Notes under the pieces: model-generated
The model's database searches: none
What the model was told of the DNA's origin: nothing
Seen by the model: the letters and a program-made list of their open reading frames with translations, nothing else
Position numbers and translations under genes: made by a program
DNA from: Kappaphycus alvarezii
Lineage: Eukaryota; Rhodophyta; Florideophyceae; Gigartinales; Solieriaceae
NCBI GenBank assembly: GCA_002205965.3
Contig: NADL03000091.1
Span: forward strand, 186,001-250,000
Reading direction: 5' to 3'
Length of the DNA: 64,000 bases
Part shown: positions 16,167-64,000 of the stretch, piece by piece
Layout: each line of letters starts with the position of its first letter
How positions within the stretch are numbered: the stretch's first letter is position 1

Positions 16167-16404
16167 TGTTGGTGTCGGTCGTTGTGTTGTTACTTTTACT
16201 CGCGCTCCCCCCAACGCTTTGCCTACCTATATAGGCAAGCGCCGGGAATGCATGTGGCCAAAGGGCGGCCGGCGGTTCCTAGAAAACAAATAAATTTCAA
16301 GACTGTAGCCTAAAATATAAAAATAACTCGTACAGCACAGTATTGTACAGTACTGTACATAAAAAATAATTAAAATATTCCGGAATCCAACATTTGTCCC
16401 CATT
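16167..16404 (-). repeat. 3' LTR of the 16.2-22.1 kb Gypsy element
   Basis: On the plus strand it begins TGTTGGTGTCGGTCGTTG and reaches CCAACA at 16,392. TTTGTCCC-like bases follow and are also present beside the other LTR. It contains a palindromic CCTATATAGG at about 16,228-16,237, a TATA box readable on both strands, and GTACAGTACTGTAC near 16,350. Purine-rich minus-strand sequence just inside is the likely polypurine tract. Confidence 0.85.
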
Positions 16405-16813
16405 ACCACCCCGCCTCCAAAATGGACTACGGGGCCGCATACTGTACTGTACGTTTTAGTATTTCAAATATCAGCCCGGCCATCCCTTCCAACCCGAGCC
16501 TTGACACCACCACCCTCGTTTCCCAGGTCTTGCTCTCAGCTTCCGTGCCTGTGTTTCTCCTCGGCTTGTGCGCCTCGTGCTGGCTCGCTCCGTGGGCATG
16601 TGCGCCTCTTGTTTATCCTTGGCTTGTATGCCCCGTGCTGGCTCGCCTTCTTTTCTCGAGCGCCTTGTAGGCCCATGCTTCTCCTCGCCATCTTATTCCT
16701 CTCATCTTGCGGTGGCACAACGACGGGGCGCAGAAGCTGAGAAGTACGGAGGTGCAGTTTCAACTGCCTGTATAATCGTGGAAGCTGATCTTTAGTTGTG
16801 CAGTAACACCGCA

Positions 16814-17002
16814 ATGGCGAGGACAAAGCAGTTGGCTAGGTTGAGCACGGGTGGAAAAGCGCCTCGGGAGAAGAGCGCTACGAAGGCCGCGCGGATGTCA
16901 AGAGAAGCGGACGCCGAAGATTGGTCGGACATTGAAGGTTATTCCAAGTTTTTTTTCATAAAAGGGCATCTCACTACTGCGATAGGGCGCAATCGAAGGT
17001 GA
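16814..17002 (+). CDS. Antisense ORF with histone H3-like N-terminal tail inside the Gypsy element
   Basis: 62 residues starting MARTKQLARLSTGGKAPR. Over the first 29 positions, counting the Met, 23 match the canonical histone H3 tail. With H3 numbering, K4, S10, K14, K23 and S28 are kept, K9 is Leu, K18 is Glu and K27 is Met. After about residue 29 the similarity ends in an acidic stretch (SREADAEDWSDIEGYSKFF), and no histone fold follows. The ORF lies about 410 bp inside the LTR on the strand opposite to gag-pol, between integrase and the 3' LTR. The LTR's palindromic TATA could fire toward it. A second H3-like ORF sits in the same relative place at 63,340. An incidental captured histone fragment is possible but does not explain both. 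Confidence 0.7.
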   Translation: MARTKQLARLSTGGKAPREKSATKAARMSREADAEDWSDIEGYSKFFFIKGHLTTAIGRNRR

Positions 17003-17648
17003 CGGGTAATGTGAGTGGTTTCAAGCGGGAGGGTTTACGTTGATTCAACATTTATCATCATTTGATTGCCTTCTATGTTGTGTACTTCATTTCTTCTTGT
17101 TATTTCGGGCGATCTCGATACTTCGTAGAAGGTTATCCATCAATAATGGGAAGTTGATTAATGAAGATCTTGTAGACATGTGTCTTGAACTAACAAAACA
17201 ATTGTATTTCTCATCGACAAGAGGAAATAATTTCAAACAAACAGGAGAAAAGTTCTGCTAAACGGTACACTGCAACCACTATGATAGGCGAGAATGGAGG
17301 GCACTACTTTTGCAGGCTTCTGGGGCGGACCACAAAAGGAACCAAACGCCTTGCATGCATAGCACGTCGGGAGTAACGTCCACCATACGAGGTCAGCCAA
17401 TACCTCGGGTGATCCCCTTTCCATATCTGGAACGGCCCGAAGTATCTTGATTTGAAAGCTGGCCACTTAACTGTTGTCTGCAAGGCCGCTCCATGTGCGA
17501 CAAGGACCCAGTCGCCTACGTTGAACCCTAAGGTCCCGAGAATGCCTTGTTATCAATACTCGATCTTGCTCCTTCCTTCTTCGCGCCCGGGTGCCACGTT
17601 TGCTAGCAACTCCAATCGTCGATGACTCTCCGAGGCGTTGGAAATAAG

Positions 17649-18533
17649 CTATCGCGTCTGATGATTCCATGCGGGCACAATCCGTACATCAACTCGAACG
17701 GGGATGCTCCGGAGGCGAACGACGACGACGGTATCCATACAAAACGTTCGGCAAGCTCTCCTCCCAATCCATCCCTGACCTAGAACCATCTTTGACGGCG
17801 TCTTGATGGTGCGTACCATCCTCTCGGCCCTACCATTCGACATAGGGGCGTAGCCAGAACAGTGCTCCAAGAGATTCCGTGTTCCCCAAAAAGGGATGAG
17901 AGAAGCAGCGGTGAAGCATCCAGCATTGTCGGATACAATGGTCTTAGGGGGACCAAAGTGGAACAAAATTTCCTTCTCTATGAACTGAGTAACAGTCCTG
18001 GCCGACGAATCTTCTGTGGCCAAAGCGGTTGGCCAACCCGTTAAATGCTCTACCGCAATGAGCAAAAACTTCTTCCCGCCCTTCGACTTCTGAACGGCCC
18101 GGCGAAATCGATAAATAAGTCTCGAAATGTTTGAGAGCGGCAATTTCAGTTGTACGGTAAGGTGGGATCGGTTTGGTCTTCTGACATCCCTCTTTTCACG
18201 TAGTTTGGATGTCCTTATGCATATACGGCCACCAGTAGCGGTCAGAGATGAACTTCTTCGTTGTTTCGGTGTCCAGTGTCCAATATCGTCGTGGAAGCTG
18301 TGGAGTATCGACGCCCTATCCTCAGGAAGGGAACAGTCTTGAGTCCCATTTTCGTGCGTCGTAGTAGCTTCCCCTCCCAAACCATGAAAGCTTCGCCATA
18401 CGCTTGATTGCACGCCTCTTGGTTTCGTCTTCTTCTTCGATCTTAAACTCCTGCAAATGGCGAGCGACCTCATAAGATGGGATTCCAATGAGAGGCCCTC
18501 CACGGCAGCGACTGAACCAACTGTTGCAACCAA
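17649..18533 (-). pseudogene. Gypsy integrase region (fossil part of the 16.2-22.1 kb element)
   Basis: Shows the retroviral-type integrase core: GGKKFLLIAVEHLTGWPTAL with the first catalytic-region Asp replaced, IVSDNAGCFTAASL around the second Asp, and SNGRAERMVRTIK around the Glu. It is part of a broken polyprotein. Confidence 0.85.
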
Positions 18534-21500
18534 GTCTCCTTCGTCGACCCCTGTGGTGGTGTGGAACCAGTAGGGACGGCTCGCGACAAGTAGTCCGGGC
18601 GCCGTTATTTGCGCCCGGCCTATACTCTACTTCGAACTCGTACTCAGAAAGAAAGTCCATCCACCGCGCCAACCTTCCATGGATGTCGTTCTTTTAAAAG
18701 CGTAGCGGAGGGCTTGATGATCGGTAACCAACCTGAATGGCTTTGTCGACAACAGGTATACCCGAAACTTCCGCAAGGCGAAGATTACCGCTAGAGCTTC
18801 CCTTTCACATGCGTAATAGTTCTTCTCAGCCGAATTCATAGTGCTGTGCATACTGACGGGGTTTATCTTCCCGTCTTCCTTTTTCTGGGCGAGACTGCCC
18901 CTACCGCGACGCTTGAAGCGTCAGTTTCCACTAAATGGGGAATCGAAGTCGGGAAATGCCAGAACCGGTGGAGTGGTGAGCTTTTCTTTCAAGGTCTCGA
19001 ATGCCTCCATCATTCATCTCTCCAGTTGAATTTCTTATTTCAGACGTATAGGCATTAATGCGGCTGAAATCTCGGAAGCCACGAATAAAACGGCGTAATA
19101 ACCGCAAGGCCAAGGAAACCGCGCAACTCAGTCGTATCCTTCGGAACTGGTGATTCTTGATGCCTTAATCTTCTCTTCGTCGACATGAACTCCGTTTTTG
19201 TCCACCTGTGCCCAGTAACTTCACAGCTGGTTTTGCAAAGTCACACTTGGTGATCTTGAGTTCAGACCCGCCTTTCCGATAGCGTCAAAAATTAATTTAA
19301 GTGACAATGTGCTCCTCGACGGAGTTAGAAAAGACGACAACATCGTCCAGATAAACGCGAGCAAAGGGAATGTCCCGTAAAACGTAGTCCATCATACGCT
19401 GAAAAGTTGACGGCGCATTCATGAGACCAAAGGGCATAACCTCAAACTTGAACGTCCCGTAGCGGCAAATAAATTCATCATTCCTTGCAATCTTCGCTCA
19501 TGCGAACCTGCCAGTATCCTGCGAACAAGTCGAGGGTAGTGAATACCGAACTACCCTTTAGGTCGTCGAATATTTCTTCTACTTGGGCAGAGGCCAACGA
19601 TCAGCCTTCATCTTATGGTTCAAAGTGCGGTAGTCCACACAGAATCTGGGCTTCCCGTCCTTCTTGGAGGCGATCACTACAGGAAAGGACCATGCCGAAG
19701 ACGCTGGGGTAATATTCCTGCTTCCAGCATCTTATCAACTTCTTGTCGGACCGTATCGTTGTGACGCGGAGCCAGGCGACGAGCTCTGTGGTATACTGGG
19801 TTTTGGTCTTTAGCTCAAACTTGTGTTCCACTGGAACTGCGGCGGGACGAGCTCTCAATCTTCCAAGCGACTATGCATTGTTCGGAGGGAATCGTTTTTC
19901 GCGCTTGGTCTTCTTCTCGAAGGTGCGCTAGACGAGCCCTCAGAGCGCCACGAACTTCGTTTCTTCTTCATCGGTGGTGCTTTCTCCGTCGGGATGCTTC
20001 TCATCTTCTTGTTCCACGACGTCTCGCGGATGAACAAAACAAGTTCTTCTTCGGATGAATCCGATGACTCCGGTCCAGCGTTCGAATCGGATGTGAAATC
20101 TCCTGGGAGTACCGATATCTTCGCCTTCGACGAGCTCTTCTCGGTCGCTTTTGCGTCAGGTTCGAGCGGTAGCACGACTTCTTCGGACCCGATGTACAGG
20201 CGCACACTCTGTGCTCCAAAGTCTAGGCTCGCGCGCATAGATGCGAGTGCAGGAAGTCCAATGATAATGTCAAATGGAGACTTCTCGACAACAAGGTAGT
20301 CCAGCTTGACCCTTGCTCTCCAAAGTAGTAGGAACATTCAGAAACGAGCCGACACAAGATGAACTTTCTCATTGCCACTGTATCTTCCTTGACGTAAAAT
20401 TCGGTGATAGATACAATCGTTGAGAAAGACGGCAGACATCACGTTGGGAACTGCCCCAGAGTCTAGCAATGCCCAAACGTCAGTGCCATAAACCAAGTTG
20501 TACGACTCGTAATAGGCGAGATTCCGGGTTAGATACGACCGCGACGCGGGGTAATGACTGCTTCCCAGCAAACGGCGCATTATCTTGGTAGCTCCATCTG
20601 CATCCCCACGAAGGAGCTGGCCAAATGTCAGACCGCAGTTGGCATTTGCAAGTTCCGACACGACGTCGTATTTGCCAACGTACTCTTGGATCTTGTTCGA
20701 GTTCTTTTTGCGCGTTGTTCTTCTTCGGTTTCCTCGTGCTGTTCAAATTACGTAATTTTTCTACCGGAGGGACTGAGGGAATAACTCGGGCTTGGTGCGG
20801 GTTATTCACTAGACGGGATATCGGAATCCTTCGTAGCTTCCTTGGGAGGCTGTTTCGGTAAGGCCTCGCCCTCGGCTGTTCTTTTCGTTGCATTAACTAC
20901 TTCTTGGATACCATTCTTGGTGTCTGAATCGCTTTCACAGACTACATTAACTTGGCCTGCTTTTCCATCTTCCTCCTTCTCGTTTTTATCGTGAGACACC
21001 GAAGATTTATCCTTAGCGAAGACCAACAAGTGGTTTCTGAATGACCGGTCTTGCCGCAATAAGATCTGTGCGTATTGCGGTGGGGTTTCTCTCGCATTTC
21101 ATGGAATTGTGACCTAGTTCGTTGCAATAAGAGCACGAACGATTTTTGTTGCCCTCTGTTGGCTGAAGAAGGTCCTGCACCGTTATCTCCCTTCTATTTT
21201 AAAAACAATGTCAGTCTGGAGAATCCTCAGCGAGAGCGTCCACCTTGTTCTCGATGTTTCCGGAACGGGAGTCTGGACGACCTAACAACTTGGCCGGTGG
21301 AACGTCTGAAACTCGGCTTGAAGGGCTAATAAACGTGAGGCGATTAGATTGAAAGCCTCGGAGAGCTTGTCTGATGCTTGAGTAGTCTCGAGGCCCACGG
21401 AACACTAAGAAATGCTGTAGCTCCTCGTGACGACAGGCAGCTGTGCGTAAAAGTCCAAATCTTGTAACGTTGCCAATCCGCTTTCTCGTAAAGGCGATCC

Positions 21501-21847: not shown

Positions 21848-22085
21848 TGTTGGTGTCGGTCGTTGTGTTGTTGCTTTTACTCGCGCCCCCCCCCGACGCT
21901 TTGCCTACCTATATAGGCAAGCGCCGGGAATGCATGTGGCCAAAGGGCGGCCGGCGGTTCCTAGAAAACAAATAAATTTCAGCACTGTGGCCTAAAATAT
22001 AAAAATAACTCGTACAGCACAGTATTGTACAGTACTGTACATAAAAAATAATTAAAATATTCCAGAATCCAACATTTGTCCCATC
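21848..22085 (-). repeat. 5' LTR of the 16.2-22.1 kb Gypsy element
   Basis: It is nearly identical to 16,167-16,404, differing at about eight positions. On the minus strand the internal side starts TGGTAC directly after the LTR end, fitting a primer-binding site that begins with TGG, but I could not assign the tRNA. Outside the LTR is AGTGTT, matching the left flank. Confidence 0.85.
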
Positions 22086-33198: not shown

Positions 33199-33564
33199 AT
33201 GCCACCCGTGACAGGCAAAACCTCCAATCCCGACACAACTGCTGACCCAACGCCTGTCAAGACAGCCAACAGGGTCGCATCACAACAGAAGGGATCTGTC
33301 GCCCAACGGCCAAAGGACATTCACTCTAATCGTCCCGGGAACCCCTCTTCCTCCGCGAAGACGACGGAACTGCGTGCAAACCGCACTCGCGCCCCTTCCC
33401 AACGCATGCAGGACATGCAAACGAAGAAGGCAAAGCTCTCCGTGGTCCTACTGCAGGAGACTAGGGAACTAAAGCATCTCGCAACTAGTCCCTCCTCCAG
33501 CTTCGCTTCCCCCCCCCTACCCCTGTACATATGCCCACCCACAACCAAGAGAGCTCCCCGTTGA
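33199..33564 (+). CDS. Family B ORF1 (LINE accessory protein), possibly 5' incomplete
   Basis: About 120 residues from MPPVTGKTSNPDTTADPTPV to the TGA at 33,562. It is rich in Pro, Ser, Thr and basic residues with no zinc knuckle, as in ORF1 of families A and C. The frame is also open upstream through the A fragment, so the native start is uncertain. It overlaps the ORF2 start (33,531) by 34 bp in another frame. Confidence 0.5.
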   Translation: MPPVTGKTSNPDTTADPTPVKTANRVASQQKGSVAQRPKDIHSNRPGNPSSSAKTTELRANRTRAPSQRMQDMQTKKAKLSVVLLQETRELKHLATSPSSSFASPPLPLYICPPTTKRAPR

Positions 33565-34924
33565 ATATTCTCCTTCCGTCAGTACATGATGCGCTGTACA
33601 GCCCGCTGCGGCCTCCTGACATCTTTGACCGCATCCCCGGGACCGGCTTGCATAGCCTCGCGATCTTACTGATCTCACTTTTTCGCGCCGCAGCCAATGC
33701 TCGAAATCCCGATGTCGTCCACTCTGCCTTCCTCAGGATTCACCTACTTCCCACTGCAGTCTTACGGCGGTTAATGCGGGGGGAAGCCGGGTGGCAATCC
33801 AAGACAAGACAAAGCCAAGCACTCCGCGAGCGAATACGCCGCGCTTCTGCAGGTGAATGGCCGATTTGTGGACAGAGGCGATTCAAGCACACCACGTCAA
33901 AGAAGAACGAGTGGTCCGACCACGTCCTCAACAGAACAACGCAATGCGCGAAGCAAAATTCCGCAGGGCAGCCCATCTTGCTGCAGATGCGCAATATGGG
34001 CGTGCAATGCGCACCCTGCACCAGTCGCACATTGCTGATGTGCGTGACCCGCAAGTCATCGAAAGCCTGCGAAAACTGCACCCAGCACCGCAGTCTCCAG
34101 TGAGAGCCATAGAAGCGAGAGACTTGCCGCTCCCGGCGGACATTTCGGAGGAAACGGATCTACGCGCGGTCCGACGCCTGAACCCTAACTCCGCACCTGG
34201 CCCCGACAGAATGTTACCGCGACTCTTGCACCTGCTGGCCAACACACGGATGAGCCCTGAAGCTGGGGTGACGGGTATCTCGGTACTAACAGCTGTTGTG
34301 TCGAGACTAGCTCAAGGAGACCTCCCAAATGAGACAATCCCCCTTATCTCCTCTGCGACACTGTTGCCGATCCAACCCCGGCCAGACAAGATCCGCCCTA
34401 TTGCAATTGGGACGGCCTTGCGGCGACTGGTGACGAAAGTGCTCTTACCCCAGGCATTGGAAGACACGAGGGAATACCTCGCTCCACTACAGGTGGCCAA
34501 CGGAGTGCACTGTGGACTGGATTCTATCGTAGACGAAGCCCGAAGACTGGTCTCCACCCAAGGTGAAGATGAGGACTACGCGCTGGTTTCAGTGGATGCA
34601 CATAATGCGTTCAACCGCTTTTCGAGACAGAAAATGTTCGACCTCCTGCCGACCAAAGTGCCGTCGTTATGCCGTTTTCTGAACATGGTGTATGCCCGTC
34701 AAATGCAGTCCCTAATCTTGCCTACAGCATCGACACAAGACATCCCCAGCCAAGAAGGGATGCAACAAGGGGACCCAGCAAGTATGTTGATGTTCTCCCT
34801 TGTCATACCCCCACTGGCAAGAGAAATTTCCGATCAGACCCAACTCCATTTACACAGATGGTATGCGGATGACTGCACCCTGGTAGCAATCACACTGAGC
34901 TCGACAAGGCTGTCGAGATCCTGA
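33531..34924 (+). pseudogene. Family B ORF2, N-terminal part and reverse transcriptase
   Basis: The first frame, 33,531-33,850, has DIFDRIPGTGLHSLAILLIS and AFLRIHLLPTAVLRRLMRGE. A frame change follows near 33,850. Then 33,857-34,924 holds the RT: NPNSAPGPDRM, RPDKIRPIAIGTALRRLVTK, ALVSVDAHNAFNRFSRQ (palm Asp), GMQQGDPASMLMFSL, then HRWYADDCTLV with the YADD box. The frame changes again near 34,905 and continues into the 35,092 ORF. Normal length for the RT part of RLE LINEs. Confidence 0.85.
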
Positions 34925-35091
34925 GGTCTAAGGGACCTGATCATGGCCTGTATCTAAACCCGGCGAAGACACGCCTATTCTGGCCGCGCCACCCTGCCAC
35001 TGAGACACCCCTACTGCACCGCTTTCCAAATGAGAACTTCTCAAATCACGGCATTGACCTCCTCGGCGCCCCGATCGGTTCGCCTGAATTC

Positions 35092-36525
35092 ATGGAGAAC
35101 TTTCTCAATGAAAAAATTGCAGGATGCAAAAACACGCTATCGCTGATCGATGGGATTGGGGATGCTCGCATCCGGTTCCACCTCCACCGCGTTTGTGCCT
35201 CGGCATGCAAGCTACATCATGTGATGAAGCTAACACCGCCGAGTGCAACAAGCGTCCTGGCAATGAGATTTGACCAAGAACAGATGGAATATTACGCGCG
35301 GTCAAACAACGTGCCGATGACAAGTGCGGTCCGTCAGCAAGTGGCTCTTCCGCTGCGCCTCGGAGGCCACGGATTCACACCCGTGGCAACGCTGAATCTA
35401 GCGTCGTATGCGGCCAGCGTCATCGACTCCGAACAAGTGACATGCCCCGATGATCCTAGCGTAGCGCACCACCGTGCACAAAGCTATGCACATGCTGATA
35501 CCCACCTTCTCGAGTTTGTCCGACGACTCCACCCAAGCTTCTCCGACGGACATGGTGGTCTCCCAGAAACGCTGACAGCGGCCAATCTTGCAAACAAGCC
35601 CGATAATACACACAGTATTTTATATCGAGCCTGGTGCAAGTCGGCAGCAAAGGTATTCTGGAAAGAAGACGAATGGGAGAGGTACCCAAGCACTACGCTG
35701 CATACGGAAGCTGATATTCGGCGAAGGATCCGCCGCCAGGCATACTTAGAGACGCCTGCTGCAGCCTTTCTCACCGCACATCCGTCTGTGGTCAGCCGGA
35801 CCTATAATAAGATGTGGTCAGTGATGCTACGCCGCCACCTGGGAGTTCACGTGTTTGACGACACTGTGCCGCTGCAATGCGCGGAGTGCAACAGGCCCAT
35901 GGACAACCGAGGTGACCATGCCGCGGATTTTTGCAAAAAAGGCCTGGGATGGACTAACCGGCACAATGCCGTGGTGAAGGTATTTGGCCGACAACTGTTC
36001 AAAGCAGCAGGAGTCGGCGTCCAATATGAGGTGAAATACTTACTTCCCGGACTGAATGCACGGCCTGCCGACATTCTAGTGTACCCGAGATCGGAAGAGA
36101 TCAACACCTTGCCGCCCCTCCCGGTGGCGTACGACGTCACAGTAACATCGCCATTCCAAGAGGGGTTCATGTCCATTGGAGCGCGTGAGGCGCGCGCCGT
36201 TGCCAATGCAGCGGAAAGACGGAAAAATAGGGAGCTTGCCAGCAAAGTAGCAGCCATCCCCGGTGAAGCCCTCCCAGGACGATCAAAACTGGGATGGAAG
36301 TTTGTGCCGCTAGCCTTCGACTCACTTGGATCGCCGTCTGCGACGACGTCGAAGGTAATCGACGAATACGCGGCCGCTGTCGCAACCCGCAGCGCATGCT
36401 CGGCGGGAGGAGTGAAGACTCGGCTTTATCAGCAGCTTAGTTATGCGATTTGGTCCACGTGTGCGGCGTCTGTATTATGTCGCGCCCCACAACATGCAGA
36501 GTTTAGCCACCCTATTCAAACCTAA
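35092..36525 (+). CDS. Family B ORF2, thumb, zinc motif and restriction-like endonuclease
   Basis: 477 open codons. RT-distal and thumb region: FHLHRVCASACKLHHVMKLT and VALPLRLGGHGF. Zinc motif: LQCAECNRPMDNRGDHAADF then C. Endonuclease: NARPADILVYP, then VAYDVTVTSPFQEGFM, with RPAD and D-V-T as the PD-(D/E)xK-like core. The C-terminal tail has LAFDSLG and ends YQQLSYAIWST...HPIQT. It acts in target cleavage and priming in this LINE group. The open frame suggests fairly recent activity of the copy. Confidence 0.85.
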   Translation: MENFLNEKIAGCKNTLSLIDGIGDARIRFHLHRVCASACKLHHVMKLTPPSATSVLAMRFDQEQMEYYARSNNVPMTSAVRQQVALPLRLGGHGFTPVATLNLASYAASVIDSEQVTCPDDPSVAHHRAQSYAHADTHLLEFVRRLHPSFSDGHGGLPETLTAANLANKPDNTHSILYRAWCKSAAKVFWKEDEWERYPSTTLHTEADIRRRIRRQAYLETPAAAFLTAHPSVVSRTYNKMWSVMLRRHLGVHVFDDTVPLQCAECNRPMDNRGDHAADFCKKGLGWTNRHNAVVKVFGRQLFKAAGVGVQYEVKYLLPGLNARPADILVYPRSEEINTLPPLPVAYDVTVTSPFQEGFMSIGAREARAVANAAERRKNRELASKVAAIPGEALPGRSKLGWKFVPLAFDSLGSPSATTSKVIDEYAAAVATRSACSAGGVKTRLYQQLSYAIWSTCAASVLCRAPQHAEFSHPIQT

Positions 36526-36660: not shown

Positions 36661-38067
36661 CTACGGATGCGGGCGGCGGGTAGAAACTTGTCGCGCCTGC
36701 ATTATTTGGAGACTAAATGCAAAACGGGTAACGAAGTCGCGGAGCTCCTGTTGAGGGGAGGAACCGCGACGGGAAGCAGCGAAGGAAGCAAGGCGGCGGA
36801 GAAAAGCCTTACCGTCGTCGCCCAAGGCGCCATAGATATCAATCCCGACGGGGGAGAGGAGGATATCGTTTCGGTTGCAGTAAGTGCCGTAATGACGATG
36901 TTTCTCGCGCTCTGCGAGTGTCGCGGCGGCGCCGGCAGTAACCGTACTTGGCGAAATGTGGCGGCGTGCGGAGGGGTGGGCAACAGTAACGTCGACGGCT
37001 ATATCGGTACTGTGAAGCCCGTATGCAGCGGGTATGTAAATATCCATTCGTAGCACGGGGGACTCCGAATGCCCAGATGAGTCGGGAACCTGGTGGAGGA
37101 GCGGATGTTCGACGAGGGCGACGATCCCAACTTCCTTGCAGTAGCGGGCAAGAACGTTGCGGAGGATGTGGTGACGACGAGTCATTCCGTCTTCGTATTT
37201 GCAGGTCAACGCGTGTTGACCACTTGGATCTAAGACGGGTGCGATGTCGGCCGAGCGGCGGGAGCAGACCGGACAGCGAGTAGATCCAGGGAATAGCGCG
37301 ATGCCGAGACGTAGAGCCAGAGCGACTTTCCAGGCGGAAGAGGACATGTACGTACCGCGGTGGGGTGAGGAAGCGAAGAGAAAACAGTCGATGCGGAGGA
37401 TGTGCGCACGGAGAGGAGCCGTGCTCGGTCGTGGGCTGCCGCGGACGAGAACAAGCTATCGGACTTCGATAGCATGAGTTCAGTTGTGATCGCAGACTGG
37501 AGCCTTTCGCCGGGGACCGGCGATGAACAACGCTCGAAAAGAGCCGTAGCTGTAAGCGACGAAGACCAGCTGCGGGTGGCGGGAGGATAAGAGCGAGATG
37601 GCAGACCGAGGGATCTCTTCCAAGTGGCGGTCCTGGGAAAGGGTAAGCAGGTCGGAGATAAGTCGAAAAGAATCAATTACAGATGCTGCGTATGCAGCCT
37701 CGGTAATGTCTGAAGTTTGCAGGAGACCTAGACCGCCCATTGAGAAGGGGAGAGAGGCTTGGAGCCAGGCTCGCTCTGGACAGGGCAGCTGCAATTGGTG
37801 GAACGCTTCCCTCTGCTTCTGATCGAAGCTAGCGGCGAGAACCGCAGATTGAGTGGAGGGAAGCGTACGCAGCAAGTGCATGACCTTGGAGGCGTTCGCG
37901 CAGAAGCGGTGTAAGTGGAAAGCCAATTGAGCATCATCCAAGTCTCGAAGGGATTGGAAGATGCGGTCAACTTCGTTTTGGCGGCCTGCGAAAAATTGGG
38001 AAACAAAAGCGTCCGAGCCAATCGGGGATCCCAGCACGATAAAACCAGGGGGGTTGAAAAGGGGCAA
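36661..38067 (-). pseudogene. Family A ORF2, thumb, zinc motif and restriction-like endonuclease
   Basis: 37,480-38,067 carries PGFIVLGSPIGSDAFVSQFF, DLDDAQLAFHLHRFCANASK and LQASLPFSMGGLGLLQ. After a further frame change, 36,661-37,347 has CPVCSRRSADIAPVL...GQHALTCKYEDGM (C-x2-C...H-x4-C). MDIYIPAAYGLHSTDIAVDV follows as the endonuclease core, then a tail to STRRPHP. It is the source model for the fragments at 22.2, 32.9, 48.0 and 48.9 kb. Confidence 0.85.
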
Positions 38068-39512
38068 GGAAGTGCCAAAGGGGAGTGGGAAGGGGAGAAG
38101 CCGTAAACTTGGGTCTTGGCAAGGTTGAGCTGGAACCCTAGTGGACCTCCTTCAAGCTGGATGAAACGGATGGCAGCAGCGGCTTGGGATCGAGGAAGAA
38201 CAATGTTACCGTCATCTGCGTACCAAGCGTTCAGGGCAGGTGAGAACTTCTCCTGTAACGATAGCAAGAGCGGATGGAGAGCCAGGGCAAAGAGCAAGGG
38301 ACCGAGGGGATCACCTTGCTGAGTGCCCTCTGAACTACGGACATAGTAGGGTCCGAAAGCAAGCTCTGTAGGAGCATCGTAACAAGAGTGTACCCACCGT
38401 GCGAGGCCTGGGGCATGTGTCTGTACGGCTTCCAGAATGCGCTGGCGGGAGATGCAATTGAAAGCGTTGCGAGCATCTATCTGGACCAAGACGTGATCGT
38501 GGAACTCGGGTCTCTGGGAAAGACGACGCACAGAATGAATTATTGCATCGATGCCGTTCTTGACGCCTACCCCGACCTGATGGGGCAGAAGGTAAGAGCG
38601 GATGGCGGGGGCGGCTTTGTGTGCCGCGAGCCTAGAAATTAGGCGCCGGTAGAGAAGCCCAACCGCAATCGGACGGATTCCCCCGTTTGGCTTCGGCAGC
38701 GCAATAAGACGGCCTCCGCAGAAATACGGGCGGCACGCGGCCGGCAGATCGCTGTTCAAACAGAGGTTGAGGAACTTTGTCAGGGCATGTAGGCAATCCC
38801 TCGCGGGCGTGACCCCACCTGCCGGGCGAAGCAGCATTCGCAGGAACACTGGGGATAGACCATCGGCCCCAGGAGCGGTTGAAGGATCCAGGCTGTGAAT
38901 GGCACGGCGGACATCCGAGACCGAGAACTTTAGCGCCGGAGGCAAACCGTGAGGGGGCATGGGAGTGATTGGGATGGGGGCAAGTGAAGCCAAGGATTGA
39001 AAGGTAGCTTCGCTGGGGGAGAGTGGGGGATCGACTTGGAGAAGGGCTGCTGTGGCCCGGGAAGGGCCCCGGGAGAGGAAGCGACGGCATCTGCGAAGGG
39101 CCGTGTCAGGGCGGGCGAGGGTGGGAGGGGATGGAATCGGAGAGGGGGTGGCGGAGATGAACAACGAGGAGGCCTCATCGAAGAGGTCATCATAGAGGCG
39201 GCTAGAGGCCATGCGGATGCGGTCGACAAGGCTGGAGCAATTTTCCCTGCGGCGGCGGCCAAGAGCGCGGGGGCGGTTGTGTCGGAAAACCAACTTCGGG
39301 ATGGCAAGAAGTTCCAGAAGGGCTCGAGTCCTGTGCTCTGGCGATGGAGCAGATATAACGCGGTACAAGGCAGCAAAGTATAAGTCGTAAGCCGCGGCTT
39401 GGACCGGGCGAGGAATGAAGGTGAGAACAGGGAAGGGGGCGGAGAGGAGGGAGCGGAAGGTGAGGGGTGACTGGGATGGTCCTGAAACTAGATTCACAGC
39501 TGGGAGATTCAT
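37728..39512 (-). pseudogene. Family A ORF2, N-terminal part and reverse transcriptase
   Basis: Starts MNLPAVNLVSG at the ATGA overlap. RT blocks in order: SLDPSTAPGADGLSPVFLRM, IALPKPNGGIRPIAVGLLYR, VLVQIDARNAFNCISRQRIL (palm Asp), EGTQQGDPLGPLLFALAL, LNAWYADDGNIVLPR (catalytic YADD), LGFQLNLAKTQVYGF. At about 38,060 the reading frame changes and the protein continues as in 37,480-38,067. The last about 110 codons of this frame are therefore not native. An apurinic endonuclease domain is absent upstream. Confidence 0.85.
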
Positions 39513-39865
39513 GCGTTAGGATCCATGTCGGCATCGGGGGCAGGAATGTGTTCGAGGAGACCATAGGGGTTGGTGTCTGCTGGTGTAGTAGGGAGCGGAG
39601 GGATGGGCGATTGGGCATTCGGGGCGCCGACTGTAATCCAGCCATCCGTTTGAGGCGGAACAGGGGCAGTCTGGGTACGGCGGCGTTTGAATCCACCTGC
39701 CGCTGCTGGTGGGGGAGGCAGAGGGACTGCTCCAGGGAAACCAGGGAGGTCCGACAGTTTGGCAAGTATTTTCGTATCGATATCCCGGAGAGCGGTGGCG
39801 AAGGATCGAGCCGGAGACCATTTGCAATTGTCGTCTTCCAAGCGAGAGATTTCAGAACGCAGACC
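39509..39865 (-). CDS. Family A ORF1, 5' truncated
   Basis: The frame reads GLRSEISRLEDDNCKWSPAR then DTKILAKLSDLPGFPGAVPL and ends HIPAPDADMDPNA. A short possible coiled stretch is followed by Pro-rich sequence. The stop TGA overlaps the ORF2 start in the tetranucleotide ATGA (39,509-39,512), so ORF2 could be made by termination and restart. The 5' end is missing because the copy is truncated at the target duplication. Confidence 0.7.
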   Translation of the reverse strand, partial: GLRSEISRLEDDNCKWSPARSFATALRDIDTKILAKLSDLPGFPGAVPLPPPPAAAGGFKRRRTQTAPVPPQTDGWITVGAPNAQSPIPPLPTTPADTNPYGLLEHIPAPDADMDPNA

Positions 39866-39946
39866 TCTGTGATAAAGTAATTCATATAAGAAGAAACTTT
39901 ACTTCATTGAGTATCTATCGTGTACACTGCAGGACTGACTATACGG

Positions 39947-40390
39947 CTAAGAACTAACCGGATGTTCCACGTCAGGCACGTGCAGTGGGGCTCGCGATAG
40001 AATCGCCATTGCAATAGAAGACCACAGTGTGCAACTAATGCGCTGATAAATACGTCTGCGGATCACTGCTGTGGTTGTGTTGAACTTCTCTGCGATGCGC
40101 GGGATGAAGTCTTCGATGAACAGGATAGAGGCGGGGGATGGGGCACCCAAGGAGTCGAAAGCCAGGGGCTGAAACTTGAAGTTCGGTTCCTGGAGGGTGT
40201 TGTGCGAAGGGGGCGGGATGCGGCGTACCAGTTTGCGCTCCAGGTCTGTGACTTTGTCTCGATGGGCAATGTCGGCGGCGCCGCCGGCCATTTGGGTGGC
40301 CCTTGTGCGCACACCTTGTTTGAACGGCGAGACAATGGTTAGGTCGCAGGCTATGGGGCGGACCTGTTGACCAGTGGGCAGGGGGGGGGT
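39947..40390 (-). pseudogene. Family C ORF2, endonuclease end and C-terminus
   Basis: Carries the second half of the restriction-like endonuclease (ACDLTIVSPFKQGVRTRATQ), then LAFDSLGAPSPASILFIEDF and CTLWSSIAMAILSRAPLHVP. This parallels LAFDSLGSPSATTSKVIDEY and the C-terminus of family B. Confidence 0.75.
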
Positions 40391-43233
40391 TGTATGAGAA
40401 TGTCCGCAGGACGGATATTCGTTCCCGGGACAAGGAGCGGGACTTCGTATTGGCAGTCCAGGCCCGCGGCGCGAGCAACGTGGTAGGCGAAAACGTTGCG
40501 CAGCGAGTTGTGGCGGTGCGGGCGGCCGAAGCCGGCAGGGCAGAGGTCAGCCGCGTGGTCCCCGAGTGCGTCCAAAGTTTGATTGCAGTGGGCACAGGTG
40601 AGCGGGCGGGAGTCGTCGTATACGGGGAGGCCTAGGTGCCGGCGGAGCATGGTCTGCCAGTGGGCCGAGGACACCACCGTAGCGGTTGTGGGGTGAGCGA
40701 TGAGAAAAGCGGCGGCGGGGCTGTTCCGGAACGCCAGGCCACGGATCCGATGTCGAACTTCTTGAGTGCTGTGCTGAGCCGGGTTGGGGTGTGTCAACCA
40801 TGAGTCGTCGCGCCAGTGGACCTTTGCCTGTGCCTCCTGCTGCACACCATTTAAGAAGGTTTGGAGGTTGGATGGTTTGGCAGCAAGCAGGCATGGGTCA
40901 AAGGGGCCGAGGTCGACGGAGTACGGGCGCCCAGGGATACATTGCAGGAAATCACGGATTCGCGGCAAGGCTTGTCGGACCAGGAACGCCCTGTCACCTC
41001 GGTATCGGTGACCAGAGACGGCGGCAGAACGTTGCGTGGTATACGATGCCGATCTCTCACGTGCCGGAACCGCGTCGATGATACTAGCTGCGACCGAGCC
41101 GTGTAGGAACGGAGAGATGAGGGTAAATCCCTGACCTCCCTGGCGGATGGGTAGCGTGACTTGGTCCCATGCAGTGTCTGTGAGGGCGATCCCGTGTAGC
41201 TCCGAGTACGACGACCTCTGCAGGGCGTCAAAGGCTTGTGCAGCGGGGGCCGAGTGTTGTGGGTCGGCGAGCCGGAACGCGTGGGTGACGAGGCATGCCG
41301 ACGCGCACAGCCGGTGCATGTGGAAACGGGCGCGGGGGTCACGAACGTGGGTCAGCAGTCGGAGGGTGCGGCGGCACCCATCGACCTTGTCCCGTAGGTA
41401 TGCATCGGTGAAGGCCCGGTTGCCCATCGGCGCTCCTAGGAGCTCGAAGCCGTCGCGCGAGCACTCGGACAGATGAAAAACCCGGAGGAATTCCGTGCGG
41501 TCCGGCGAGGAGCGTGTTCGGCCAGTAAATGCGCGTCTTCCTCGCGTTGACATAGAGGCCCACAGCCGGACCCTCAGCCTGCAGGAGGTGGAGAGCGCGG
41601 CGCAGACCCTGAAGTGTCCCTATGAGAGTCCCGTCATCCGCGTACCATTGATTAAGCACGATGTCGCTGTCCTCGGCGATTTTCCGAATTAATGGTTGGA
41701 TCGTGAGGGAAAACAGCAACATACTGGCCGGGTCGCCCTGCTGGGTGCCCTGAGCACTCGGATGACCGTGTTCTGGCGATTCGGTATAAGCAACGGTGGC
41801 TGAATACGACCGTATATCATATTCACGAAGCGGGCCAGAGAAGGAGCGAGTGCAGGAAGTTGAGACAGCATTGACTGGCGATCAACGCGGTTGAAAGCGT
41901 TGTGCGCGTCAATGAGGACCGTGGCAACATGCGGAGCACCAGTGAAACGGCGAAGCAGGGTGCGGTGTCATGGATGACCGCGTCCATCCCGGCCTTGATA
42001 CCGTTGGCCGTTTGGAATGGCGCGAGGAAGTCTCGAGAGTCATCGATGGCGCTCGGCAGCAGCGTCTTGGTGACGATGCGGCGGAGGACCGACCCCACAG
42101 CGATGGGACGAATTTTGTCCGGTCTCGGCCGTAGCGGGAGTAATGTTGCGGCAGCGAGCAGGGGCAGGACCGAGTCCGGCAGTTCCCCACGCGCGATCCG
42201 CATCACCAACTTCGTAAGCACACTTTTCCCTGTCACCCCGGCGGCCGGGCTGACCGATGTTTTGACTAGCAAGTGGAACCAGCGTGCCGGCGTGCGGTCC
42301 GGTCCCGCGGTCGTACCACGAGAAATACCTCGTACAGCCTGCTCTACGGCGTCTGCCGTGATTGATGGTGGAGGAGGAAGGCCATCTTCAGGAATGGGCG
42401 TGATCGGGCGCGGGGGCGCGGGGTGAAGATCACGCAGCGCTTGTATGGTGTGCGGGTCGTTCACATCGGCTAGCGGAGCGTTGTGCAGGGACCGCATGGC
42501 CTTGCCGTAGCGGGCGTCTGCACAGAGGGCTTCAGCGCGACGGGCGCGCCGAGCGTCGCTGGAGCCCGAGCCGTAGGCGGGGCGGTGCTGCTGGATCCAT
42601 TCAGAGCGTGCTTCATGGGCGCGAAGGGCTTCAAACCACAAGGTGTTCCACTCAGCTCCGGTATGGGCGCGTCGGATTCGGGCACTTAGTGCGGCCCGTT
42701 GACCTTTGTTATGCTGCCAGCCATCCTCCCCGCGCAAGCTGCGGCGGAGGACAGCGGTTGGCAGCATGTGGAGGTGCAGGAAGGCACGGTAGGTGGCCTC
42801 GTCCCCCTTGCGTTGGCGGCGGCTTGTACCAGCTTGATAAACAGGAGAGTGAAGGGCTTGAGACATGGGAATGGGATATCCTGGAAGATGTCCCTTTCCC
42901 GGTATGGGGTGCGGAGGATGTCTTCGGGGCTTGGTAAGGGAGAGGCAGCGGAGGAGGGAGGATGGGGTGGGGTGGAGATGTCCATGGGGAGGATGCTTAG
43001 GCGGAGGAGCCGTCACCCGACCGCACTCCTTCCATTGCGGACGCACCGACAGCTGGAGGAAGGGGGCAGCGGGGGTCTTGAGTGGGTCCCTGGGTCGGAG
43101 GTGGGACATCTTGCATGCCTATGGACGACGGCGGCATGGCGGCGTGTGTGGCGGACTCCCGACCCTGTGGCGCCGAGGAGGCGACAGTGGGCGGCAGAAC
43201 GGCCGGGAGCGTCGGGGTTGCGGTGGGCACCAT
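40351..43233 (-). pseudogene. Family C ORF2 (RT, zinc motif, RLE), broken
   Basis: Starts at the TGATG junction with MVPTATPTLPAVLPPTVASS. The pre-RT part has DIFQDIPFPCLKPFTLLFIK and HMLPTAVLRRSLRGEDG, like family B. RT: TTAGPDRTPARWFHLL, RPDKIRPIAVGSVLRRIVTK, then NQWYADDGTLIG with YADD (41,640). Post-RT: FHMHRLCASACLVTHAF and DQVTLPIRQGGQGFTL. Zinc motif LTCAHCNQTLDALGDHAADL then C, followed by RPADILIQP. The frame changes at a G-run and the endonuclease continues as IACDLTIVSPFKQGVRT below 40,351. Confidence 0.8.
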
Positions 43234-62756: not shown

Positions 62757-63024
62757 TGTAGGGAGGGGTCGATAGGTCGACGCTGCCCCCTCAGAGTTGC
62801 GCAACCGACTCGGGTGCTACCTATATAACAGACACCCGAGCGGCTATGGCTGAGATTTGTCCGTACAGTAGTGTACTTACTGTACACTACTGTACTGGAC
62901 CCTTAAAATGATTAAAAATAGTAGGTAAAAAGATAGAAAGTACAGTACATCAGTCACCCTGGAAAGTTGTCATAGATAGTACTAAAAACGCATAAAAATC
63001 ACCTTCCAGCCACTGCCATCAACA
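62757..63024 (-). repeat. Gypsy-type LTR, related to the 16.2 kb LTRs (fossil, boundaries approximate)
   Basis: Layout parallels the LTR at 16,167. It has TGTAGGGAGGGGTCGATAGG at the outer edge, GTGCTACCTATATAACAG in place of GCCTACCTATATAGGCAA, TACTG palindromes, and a CCATCAACA inner edge. ACCACCCCGTCCTCAAACTG follows, compared with ACCACCCCGCCTCCAAAATG at 16,403. Overall identity is low but the order is kept. The internal region would extend rightwards beyond the window. Confidence 0.5.
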
Positions 63025-63339
63025 CCACCCCGTCCTCAAACTGCAACCCGGGTGCAGTATACAGTGAGCTCGGCCAGCTCAGGATAGAGATCGGCCGACC
63101 CTTGCACAACACCCCCCCGACACACGTACACACCCCCGTGCACGGCCTTCAACAAAGCACCTAGCCAGAGGTCTTTCTCTCTCATAAGCCTTCATCACCC
63201 CCTGTGCACCGCCTTCGCCTTGAAGCTCAGTGTCGATTCAGGTCAGACAAAGCCTCCGCGACTGGCCCGTCTACTGAGCGTGTAGAGGCGAATGAATCCG
63301 GTGGTATCGTCGTCCCAAAATCCCTCGTGGATTAGTAGG

Positions 63340-63495
63340 ATGGCGCATACAAAAAAAAACGCCCACAGGTCAACCGGCGGGAGGGCTCCCGGCTGGAACT
63401 CGCCTGTAAGGCGGCCAGGAAGAGACCGTCCCAATTACCGATTACTACCCCACAGCCCCGACGCTACCTCAAGACCATGGTATACATGTCGCTAG
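63340..63495 (+). CDS. Second antisense ORF with H3-like tail next to a Gypsy-type LTR (fossil)
   Basis: 51 codons starting MAHTKKNAHRSTGGRAPG. Aligned to the H3 tail it keeps A1, T3, K4, A7, S10, T11, G12, G13, A15 and P16, with Arg at positions 9 and 14. It lies about 315 bp inside the LTR at 62,757-63,024, on the opposite strand to the inferred element, exactly as the 16,814 ORF lies to its LTR. Further open stretches follow to the window edge. This copy looks broken, with a few interruptions. Confidence 0.55.
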   Translation: MAHTKKNAHRSTGGRAPGWNSPVRRPGRDRPNYRLLPHSPDATSRPWYTCR

Positions 63496-64000
63496 ACCAA
63501 GGTCGACGCGGAACAAACAAGAGTAGGTTCGCTCGTCTCGCCGGTCGTCCGGATGTAACCAAGATTACAAGGTCTCGCAAGGTAGGCGACAATCTAGATG
63601 ATCTCTTCTTTCGGGTTTCATTTGGGGGTTACGAGAAGGAGAAGGCCACTTCGGTTGAACTGTCTTATTATGAAGCCACCCTCTTATTCGGAAAAAAACG
63701 GTCAACATTGACGCTTCTAGAGAGCTGACGAATAGTATTGACAGGGAGCTAGATTTAAGATTGAGCTTAACCGAGTTATAGATTCTGAAGGCCACGCGGA
63801 GTACCCGGAATTTCCTGATTGGACTAACAACTCCGTGGTTTGGAAGATACCGGAAGCCGTTCACGATTTTTTTATGGGGCAGTACTTTGCCGTCGACGTG
63901 GACACAGAGGAGGAGCACCCCATCGACTTGTACACCTTTTCATTCCACGAGGCGCCCCCCGGAGCCGGTCTTCATAATCCTCCTCACAGAAACGTGAAGC
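63496..64000 (+). other. Open stretches after the H3-like ORF, unrecognised, run off the right edge (fossil)
   Basis: Plus-strand frames at 63,477-63,728 (KVGDNLDDLFFRVSFGGYEK) and from about 63,750 to the edge (DWTNNSVVWKIPEAVHDFFM, TEEEHPIDLYTFSFHEAPPG) have a convincing protein-like composition. They match no family I know. By position they may be the globular part belonging to the H3-tail-like ORF of this element, but they lie in more than one frame. Confidence 0.35.

What the first reader, a model, noticed from the sequence alone, without database searches (positions are those of the whole stretch)
16814..17002. Gypsy retrotransposon with an antisense ORF that mimics the histone H3 tail, with Leu at K9 and Met at K27
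Seen: an ATG-led ORF whose first 29 positions match the H3 tail at 23, placed antisense to gag-pol between integrase and the 3' LTR. K4, K14 and K23 are kept, K9 is Leu, K27 is Met, and no histone fold follows. Established: H3 with Met at K27 (and some other hydrophobic replacements at K9 or K27) inhibits the matching lysine methyltransferases. Inference: a retrotransposon-made tail peptide could bind readers or writers of silencing marks and blunt silencing, or tether the element to chromatin. I know of no described LTR element with this arrangement.
Basis: partly seen in the sequence, partly recalled or inferred. Interest (0 to 1): 0.93.

Follow-up and report, generated by a model that had tools for sequence, protein, structure and literature searches.

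The report
Retrotransposon gene copying histone H3's tail
A large family of jumping genes in this eukaryotic genome carries, back to front, an extra gene whose protein begins with a copy of the histone H3 tail in which the two lysines used to mark DNA for silencing are replaced by other, mostly greasy, residues, which suggests that the element imitates chromatin to escape or redirect its host's silencing.

Summary
The ORF at 16814-17002 is a real H3-tail homologue, antisense to a gypsy-type element, between integrase and the 3' LTR. It is not a one-off. The window's own 336-Mb genome gave 133 matches (a lower bound). I read 76: 2 are host H3 genes with K9 and K27, 74 are tail-only. Of 60 loci with flanks, 50 have antisense pol downstream. 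At position 9 the 74 tails have Leu 71, Phe 2, Met 1; at 27 Met 32, Ile 11, Val 25, other 6; lysine at neither. K4 is kept in 70. The tail is under purifying selection: pN/pS 0.34 and 0.18 in two subfamilies, against 0.61-0.74 in a neutral simulation with a matching identity filter. Against: a more diverged tail at 63340, not among the 74, has Arg at 9 and Lys at 27. The window copy is a short form; long forms fuse the tail to about 300 residues of unknown fold. Antisense accessory ORFs in this slot are known from plant elements; I found no histone-tail one. Best reading: a selected H3-tail mimic engaging H3 readers or writers, most likely to blunt silencing. Function is untested.

The parts
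16814..17002 (+). 62-aa ORF beginning with the H3-tail mimic (T6L, K9L, K27M); the finding
16814..16915 (+). tail shared with the other copies (residues 1-34); 85% identical to P0002, which is identical to locus L030 of the same genome
16963..17034 (+). second stretch matching P0002 residues 45-68 in another frame (46%): the window ORF is shifted relative to that copy after the tail
16919..17171 (.). junction where long-form copies hold about 1 kb more antisense coding sequence; the window copy is a short form
16401..16813 (+). leader between LTR and ATG, shared with many other copies of subfamily A
16167..16400 (-). 3' LTR of the gypsy-type element (element runs on the minus strand)
21848..22082 (-). 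5' LTR, 96.6% identical to the 3' LTR over 235
17652..18626 (-). integrase-bearing frame (rve, E 3.4e-7, 30.9 bits, just below the curated cut-off of 32.6)
18630..18920 (-). RNase H of reverse transcriptase (E 1.2e-19)
19300..19497 (-). reverse transcriptase piece (RVT_1, E 2e-11); pol is broken into several frames
63340..63492 (+). second, more diverged H3-tail-like ORF (MAHTKKNAHRSTGGRAP...); KAARK follows in another frame; further frames run towards the window end
   Evidence: score 60; reached by 1 of 1000 nulls
62906..63315 (+). stretch upstream of the second tail that aligns with the LTR and leader of the first (16288-16699)

Best explanation
It is an antisense accessory gene of a Ty3/gypsy-type LTR retrotransposon family. 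Its product starts with a selected mimic of the host H3 tail, in long forms fused to about 300 residues of unknown fold. Shown: it is multicopy, sits in a fixed antisense position beside pol in two diverged subfamilies, keeps the tail under purifying selection, and in 74 read copies does not have lysine at the two silencing positions, 9 and 27, while K4, R8, S10, K14 (Arg in one subfamily) and K23 are mostly kept. Inferred: the protein offers an H3-like N-terminus to enzymes and readers that dock on H3. With mostly hydrophobic residues in place of K9 and K27 it cannot be methylated there and may hold SET-domain methyltransferases in a dead-end complex, as K9M and K27M do, so weakening silencing of the element. 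The C-terminal part would place or stabilise it. Also inferred: expression from an antisense promoter in or next to the 3' LTR.
For: 133 matches in the own genome (366 candidates, 150 scored); 3 of these are full-length H3 genes. Antisense pol in 50 of 60 flanked loci: 37 long forms with the first pol match at 1233-1483 nt, 13 short forms; window-type LTR upstream in 30 of 60, all subfamily A. Residues at 6, 9 and 27; R8 54, S10 53 and K23 59 of 61. pN/pS 0.343 (A, n=46, bootstrap 0.29-0.39), 0.180 (B, n=15, 0.11-0.25); wrong frames 1.16-2.79; identity-filtered neutral simulation 0.61-0.74 at pS about 0.35. Between A and B the tail has pN 0.22 at pS 0.76; the C-terminal part of the 10 B loci that match L012 has pN 0.41-0.49 at pS 0.74-0.91. 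Short forms keep the tail (0.365 and 0.186). Two host H3 tails read are canonical at K9 and K27. K9M peptide binds Clr4 and G9a SET domains more strongly with SAM, norleucine similarly (PMC5030085, passages); EZH2 prefers linear hydrophobic side chains (PMC6562757, passages).
Against: No expression, binding or silencing data. Leu is branched; the passages read concern Met and norleucine, and I have none on Leu at 9 or Val at 27. The more diverged tail at 63340, not among the 74, has Arg at 9 and, in the shifted frame, Lys at 27, and P0130 from another source keeps K27, so loss of both lysines is not universal among relatives. Four of 74 have Thr, Ala or Arg at 27. Most copies are broken: of 61 tails with flanks only 3 have open frames of 250 aa or more. 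Loci were found by protein similarity, which biases pN downward (simulated, with a star tree and an identity cut-off in place of the real search). Some loci are near-duplicates. Host methyltransferases were not shown: the Pre-SET search returned nothing, but its controls returned nothing either.
Confidence: 0.55

Rival explanations
1. Chromatin tether rather than silencing inhibitor: the tail lets the accessory protein (and perhaps the integration complex) dock on H3 readers, chaperones or importins. Loss of K9 and K27 only keeps it out of HP1- or Polycomb-type binding, and so away from heterochromatin.
For: Residues 2-18, around the K4/R8/S10/K14 reader sites, are somewhat more conserved than 19-31 (A x B pN 0.19 against 0.26). 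The long form adds a 300-residue domain that evolves as protein (pN/pS 0.56, wrong frames 0.99 and 1.06). H3K9M is not bound by Clr4, Swi6, Chp2 or Chp1 chromodomains (PMC5030085, passage).
Against: Does not by itself explain why the replacements at 9 and 27 are nearly always hydrophobic (70 of 74 Met/Ile/Val/Leu/Phe at 27; 74 of 74 Leu/Phe/Met at 9). Short forms lack most of the C-terminal part yet keep the tail.
Confidence: 0.25
2. Captured host H3 fragment without function, amplified passively with the element.
For: Some LTR elements do transduce host gene pieces (PMC7264820, passages). Most copies are broken.
Against: pN/pS well below a filtered neutral expectation; pS to host H3 0.68-0.87 and nucleotide identity at most 0.65, so old; same position in two diverged subfamilies; the tail outlasts the C-terminal part.
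Confidence: 0.05
3. The conserved thing is the antisense RNA or the promoter, not the protein.
For: Antisense transcripts of LTR elements can act as RNA (PMC7264820, passage). The leader is alike among many copies.
Against: Codon-level constraint in frame 0 only, in tail and C-terminal part.
Confidence: 0.05
4. Independent gene or second mobile element whose end was picked up by gypsy, that is, the gene belongs to something else.
For: 10 of 60 flanked loci show no antisense pol in the stretch fetched; two of them (L014, L025) had about 6 kb downstream. Other sources hold tails with other downstream parts (P0130, P0003, P0004).
Against: Fixed distance and orientation to pol in 50 of 60. Eight of the 10 exceptions were fetched with only 1.7 kb downstream; L014 has a window-type LTR on both sides of the tail, the second inverted.
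Confidence: 0.08

Closest known systems
Antisense accessory ORFs (aORF-3R) of plant Ty3/gypsy elements: maize Grande gene23, rice RIRE2, Silene Retand (TRP28 domain)
   Same: Antisense ORF between pol and the 3' LTR, present in most copies of a family, nuclear product in Grande (PMC7264820, PMC11963269; passages read)
   Different: None of the passages read mentions a histone tail ('histone' occurs 0 times in PMC7264820). This gene begins with an H3 tail, is about 330 residues in the longest open copy, and has no Pfam match
HTLV-1 HBZ and other retroviral antisense genes
   Same: Antisense gene under a promoter in the 3' LTR (start of abstract of PMC10186651)
   Different: Different protein; no antisense promoter or transcript was tested here
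H3 K9M and K27M oncohistones
   Same: H3 tail with a hydrophobic residue at 9 or 27; dominant inhibition of the matching methyltransferases (PMC5030085, PMC6562757; passages)
   Different: Those are whole histones in nucleosomes with one change; here both sites are changed, mostly to Leu and Met/Ile/Val, and there is no histone fold
EZHIP/CATACOMB and viral H3-tail mimics such as influenza NS1 (recalled, no passage read)
   Same: Non-histone proteins that imitate a piece of the H3 tail
   Different: Those mimic a short stretch (recalled); here about 30 residues from Met1, carried by a retrotransposon family

Membership tests
Ty3/gypsy LTR retrotransposon (the carrier) | paired LTRs around pol with RT, RNase H and then integrase | tested here: met
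   LTRs 96.6% identical; order RT, RNase H, integrase on the minus strand; rve just below its curated cut-off. gag was not identified by Pfam (two pieces tried)
aORF-3R antisense accessory gene of LTR elements | ORF antisense to gag-pol between pol and 3' LTR | tested here: met
   50 of 60 flanked loci have antisense pol downstream
aORF-3R antisense accessory gene of LTR elements | present in most copies of the element family | tested here: inconclusive
   the loci were found through the ORF, so the share of all elements that carry it is unknown; LTR search not answered
Plant Retand/Grande lineage | TRP28 (PF04195) or other conserved aORF domain | tested here: not met
   no Pfam family above chance for the accessory ORFs scanned
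Histone H3 | histone fold after the tail | tested here: not met
   frames after the tail are unrelated to H3; the matches that cover the end of the fold lie at C655, C460, C586, C695, C600, C660:372500 and C609:1093729, none of them a tail-only locus that I read
K-to-M type methyltransferase inhibitor | H3 tail context with Met or other linear hydrophobic residue at the target lysine | tested here: inconclusive
   Met 32 and Ile 11 of 74 at 27, no Lys; Leu 71 of 74 at 9; Leu and Val potency unknown to me
K-to-M type methyltransferase inhibitor | SAM-dependent binding and inhibition of the enzyme | not testable with these tools
   needs biochemistry
Retroviral-type antisense gene (HBZ-like) | transcription from an antisense promoter in the 3' LTR | not testable with these tools
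   no RNA data; only the leader is shared among copies

The most novel reading that the evidence does not exclude
A retrotransposon family has evolved its own anti-silencing histone: an antisense-encoded H3-tail protein, altered at both H3K9 and H3K27, that captures the host's heterochromatin and Polycomb-type methyltransferases. Relatives from other sources (P0130 with T6L/K9L, P0003 with K27M, P0004 with four tandem tails) would be parts of a wider, undescribed class of histone-tail mimics.
Probability: 0.4. Interest if true: 0.97.

Novelty: new variant of a known kind. Interest (0 to 1): 0.92.

Why it matters
Transposons are silenced through H3K9 and, in many lineages, H3K27 methylation (established knowledge; not tested in this host). 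A transposon gene that keeps an H3 tail but lacks just these two lysines looks like a counter-move to that silencing, and it comes with many natural variants (Met, Ile, Val, Leu at the key positions) that can be tested as peptides. It would extend histone mimicry, known from viruses and tumours, to retrotransposons, and give the antisense accessory ORFs of LTR elements, whose roles are undetermined (PMC7264820, passages), a concrete hypothesis.

Tried and rejected
Rejected: chance; recent capture of a host H3 piece; RNA-only conservation. The nucleotide likeness between the leaders of the two window loci was at first not significant on its own: 112 against a shuffle maximum of 121. With LTR and leader together it is (0 of 200 Markov, 0 of 254 genome windows; contribution of the LTR part 2 of 500 and 1 of 449). 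The leader alone is not the best match in the window (169 against 183 elsewhere), and tail plus downstream DNA is not alike above chance (6 of 200 and 27 of 267, or 152 of 200 and 212 of 278 with the other scoring).

Led nowhere: viral-contig scans with P0001, P0002, P0004, alignment A4 and the downstream part of the second locus; genome contigs with A4; phage records with P0001; Rfam and tRNA scans; Pfam for the accessory ORFs, and PDB, whose 60 matches shown are histone H3 chains or close variants on the tail stretch. Protein searches: 2 hits of 5 candidates, 4501 hits, 120 listed, of which I read 2 (P0004, P0061), 10 hits of 20 candidates, 9 with a histone domain and P0130 without. The profile comparison with P0130 aligns the tail only; that with P0003 runs a little past it with little likeness. 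P0003 against P0130 downstream of the tail: 7 of 500 shuffles reach the score, in 21 pairs tried, so not claimed. Pre-SET family search: nothing in G000 and nothing in the 14 controls, so uninformative. LTR-DNA, SUZ12-family and IN-DNA searches of the genome did not complete.

P0002 first looked like independent support. L030 encodes it letter for letter, so it counts as the same species.

Full report
What is there. The ORF at 16814-17002 (+) is MARTKQLARLSTGGKAPREKSATKAARMSREADA.... It matches histone H3 from residue 1 to about 32 (E 3.8e-7, score 109 against a maximum of 66 in 1000 random sequences with the window's second-order composition). Numbered as mature H3, it has Leu at 6 and 9, Met at 27 and Arg at 29, and keeps K4, R8, S10, K14 and K23. 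It lies inside a gypsy-type element whose pol runs on the minus strand between LTRs at 16167-16400 and 21848-22082, between integrase and the 3' LTR. Pol is broken into several frames.

It is a family. The window is part of a 336-Mb, 884-contig genome. Searching it with the ORF gave 133 matches at E 1e-3 or better, of 150 scored among 366 candidates, so a lower bound. Two of the 76 (L080, L081) are ordinary host H3 with K9 and K27. A search with full-length H3 shows these and a third (C586, in the list but not read) as full-length genes; the other matches that cover the end of the fold (C695, C600, C660:372500, C609:1093729) are not at tail-only loci that I read. That host H3 appears in the list shows that the search did not exclude lysine at 9 and 27.

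Place. Among the 60 flanked genome loci, 50 have pol antisense downstream: 36 of 45 of subfamily A (the window's) and 14 of 15 of subfamily B, whose pol was found by protein comparison only. In 37 the first pol match begins 1233-1483 nt from the start of the tail; in 13, and in the window copy, it is close by (short forms). A window-type LTR lies upstream in 30 of 60, all A. The 10 without antisense pol are L014, L025, L029, L032, L035, L043, L048, L051, L062 and L065; eight of them had only 1.7 kb downstream to search, L014 and L025 had about 6 kb, and L048 has an RNase H match on the other strand.

Gene. In long forms the tail continues into about 300 residues (open to 327 aa in L012). Against L012, 46 of the other loci match in this part by tblastn, 10 of them B (31-49% identical per matched piece). 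It evolves as protein (pN/pS 0.56 in frame, 0.99 and 1.06 in the wrong frames); a few overlapping pieces are counted twice, and the pieces were found by protein likeness. It has no Pfam family, and its PDB matches shown are to the tail. Most copies are decayed: of 61 tails with flanks, 3 open frames reach 250 aa; the first matched codon is ATG in 34 of 46 A and 13 of 15 B, matches that begin at residue 2 counting as without. The window copy and 13 genome loci lack most of this part but keep the tail. In these the tail is as constrained as elsewhere (pN/pS 0.365 in 9 A, window included, 0.186 in 5 B; long forms 0.353 and 0.183).

Tail residues. In 61 tails and a further 13 read by eye: position 9 is Leu 71, Phe 2, Met 1; position 27 is Met 32, Ile 11, Val 25, Thr 2, Leu 1, Phe 1, Ala 1, Arg 1; position 6 is Leu 69, Lys 4, Phe 1; K4 is kept in 70. 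Lysine is absent from 9 and 27 in all 74. Some rows are near-duplicates (L023/L024; L069/L070). B has Arg at 14 in 15 of 15 (Arg there, or its neighbours, is how B was told apart). Codon 9 is TTG in 56 of 61, codon 27 ATG in 32 of 61; the two host H3 genes have AAG or AAA there. The more diverged tail at 63340 in the window was not among the 133 matches and is not counted; it has Arg at 9 and, in the shifted frame, Lys at 27.

Selection. Tail pN/pS is 0.343 in A (bootstrap 0.29-0.39) and 0.180 in B (0.11-0.25); the same DNA in the two wrong frames gives 1.16-2.79. Because the loci were found by protein likeness, I simulated neutral copies on a star tree from an A tail and kept only those with at least 21 of 30 identities to the window tail (the lowest observed). 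The expected ratio is then 0.67 (0.61-0.74 in 25 runs) at the observed pS, so the observed value is lower than this filter explains. Between A and B, pS is near saturation (0.76) and the tail pN is 0.22, half the pN of the C-terminal part in the 10 matched B loci against L012 (0.41-0.49). Against host H3 the pS is 0.68-0.87 and nucleotide identity at most 0.65: an old acquisition, not a fresh capture.

Elsewhere. P0002 is L030 of the same genome. P0130 (JGI metagenome, 217 aa) has the same MARTKQLARLSTGGKAP start with K27 kept and a different continuation. P0003 has K9 but Met 27 and Arg 29. P0004 has four tail-like repeats. The same window holds the second tail at 63340, with an LTR-and-leader-like stretch before it.

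How it may work. Shown: gene, place, constraint, and the consistent absence of lysine at 9 and 27 in 74 copies. Inferred: the product is nuclear and presents an H3-like N-terminus. H3K9M binds the SET domains of Clr4 and G9a more tightly in the presence of SAM and is not bound by the chromodomains tested; norleucine acts alike (PMC5030085, passages). EZH2 prefers linear hydrophobic side chains (PMC6562757, passages). Met at 27 fits this; Ile at 27 is listed with Met among H3 mutations in leukaemia (same review). Leu at 9 and Val at 27 are less certain. So I rank a silencing antagonist first, a chromatin tether second.

Known or not. Antisense ORFs between pol and the 3' LTR are known in plants and have no proven role (PMC7264820, PMC11963269, passages). 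Retroviral antisense genes under the 3' LTR are known (PMC10186651, start of abstract only). In nine literature searches (open-access papers only; two returned none) I saw no retrotransposon-encoded histone tail in the listings. I therefore call it a new variant: the slot is known, the content is not, as far as those searches reach.

Noticed in passing
window 63340-64000 (+): Second H3-tail-like ORF (MAHTKKNAHRSTGGRAP, then KAARK in another frame) followed by further coding-looking frames that run off the window; Arg, not Leu, at position 9.
   Followed up: partly
P0004 (JGI metagenome, 193 aa): Protein built of four tandem H3-tail-like repeats (GRTKQTARKSTGG...) with no histone Pfam domain; lysine in three and methionine in one at the K9 place.
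   Followed up: no
P0003 (Logan contig, 101 aa): H3-like tail with K9 but Met at 27 and Arg at 29, followed by unrelated sequence: the same AARMSR as in the window.
   Followed up: partly
window 33531-36525, 37480-43109 (both strands): Several long ORFs that look like non-LTR (R2-like) reverse transcriptases; the name is my reading of the frames, no family search was run.
   Followed up: no
L009, L010 and the window (EDWSDIEGYSK-type); L057, L058, L061, L068 (NQTSLTMFT-type): Short forms that keep the tail but lack most of the C-terminal part seem to have multiplied as such, once in subfamily A and once in B.
   Followed up: partly
L069, L070, L074, L076: Further subfamilies with Lys at position 6 (MARTKQKAILSTGG, MARTKKKASLSTGG) but still Leu 9 and Val 27.
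   Followed up: no
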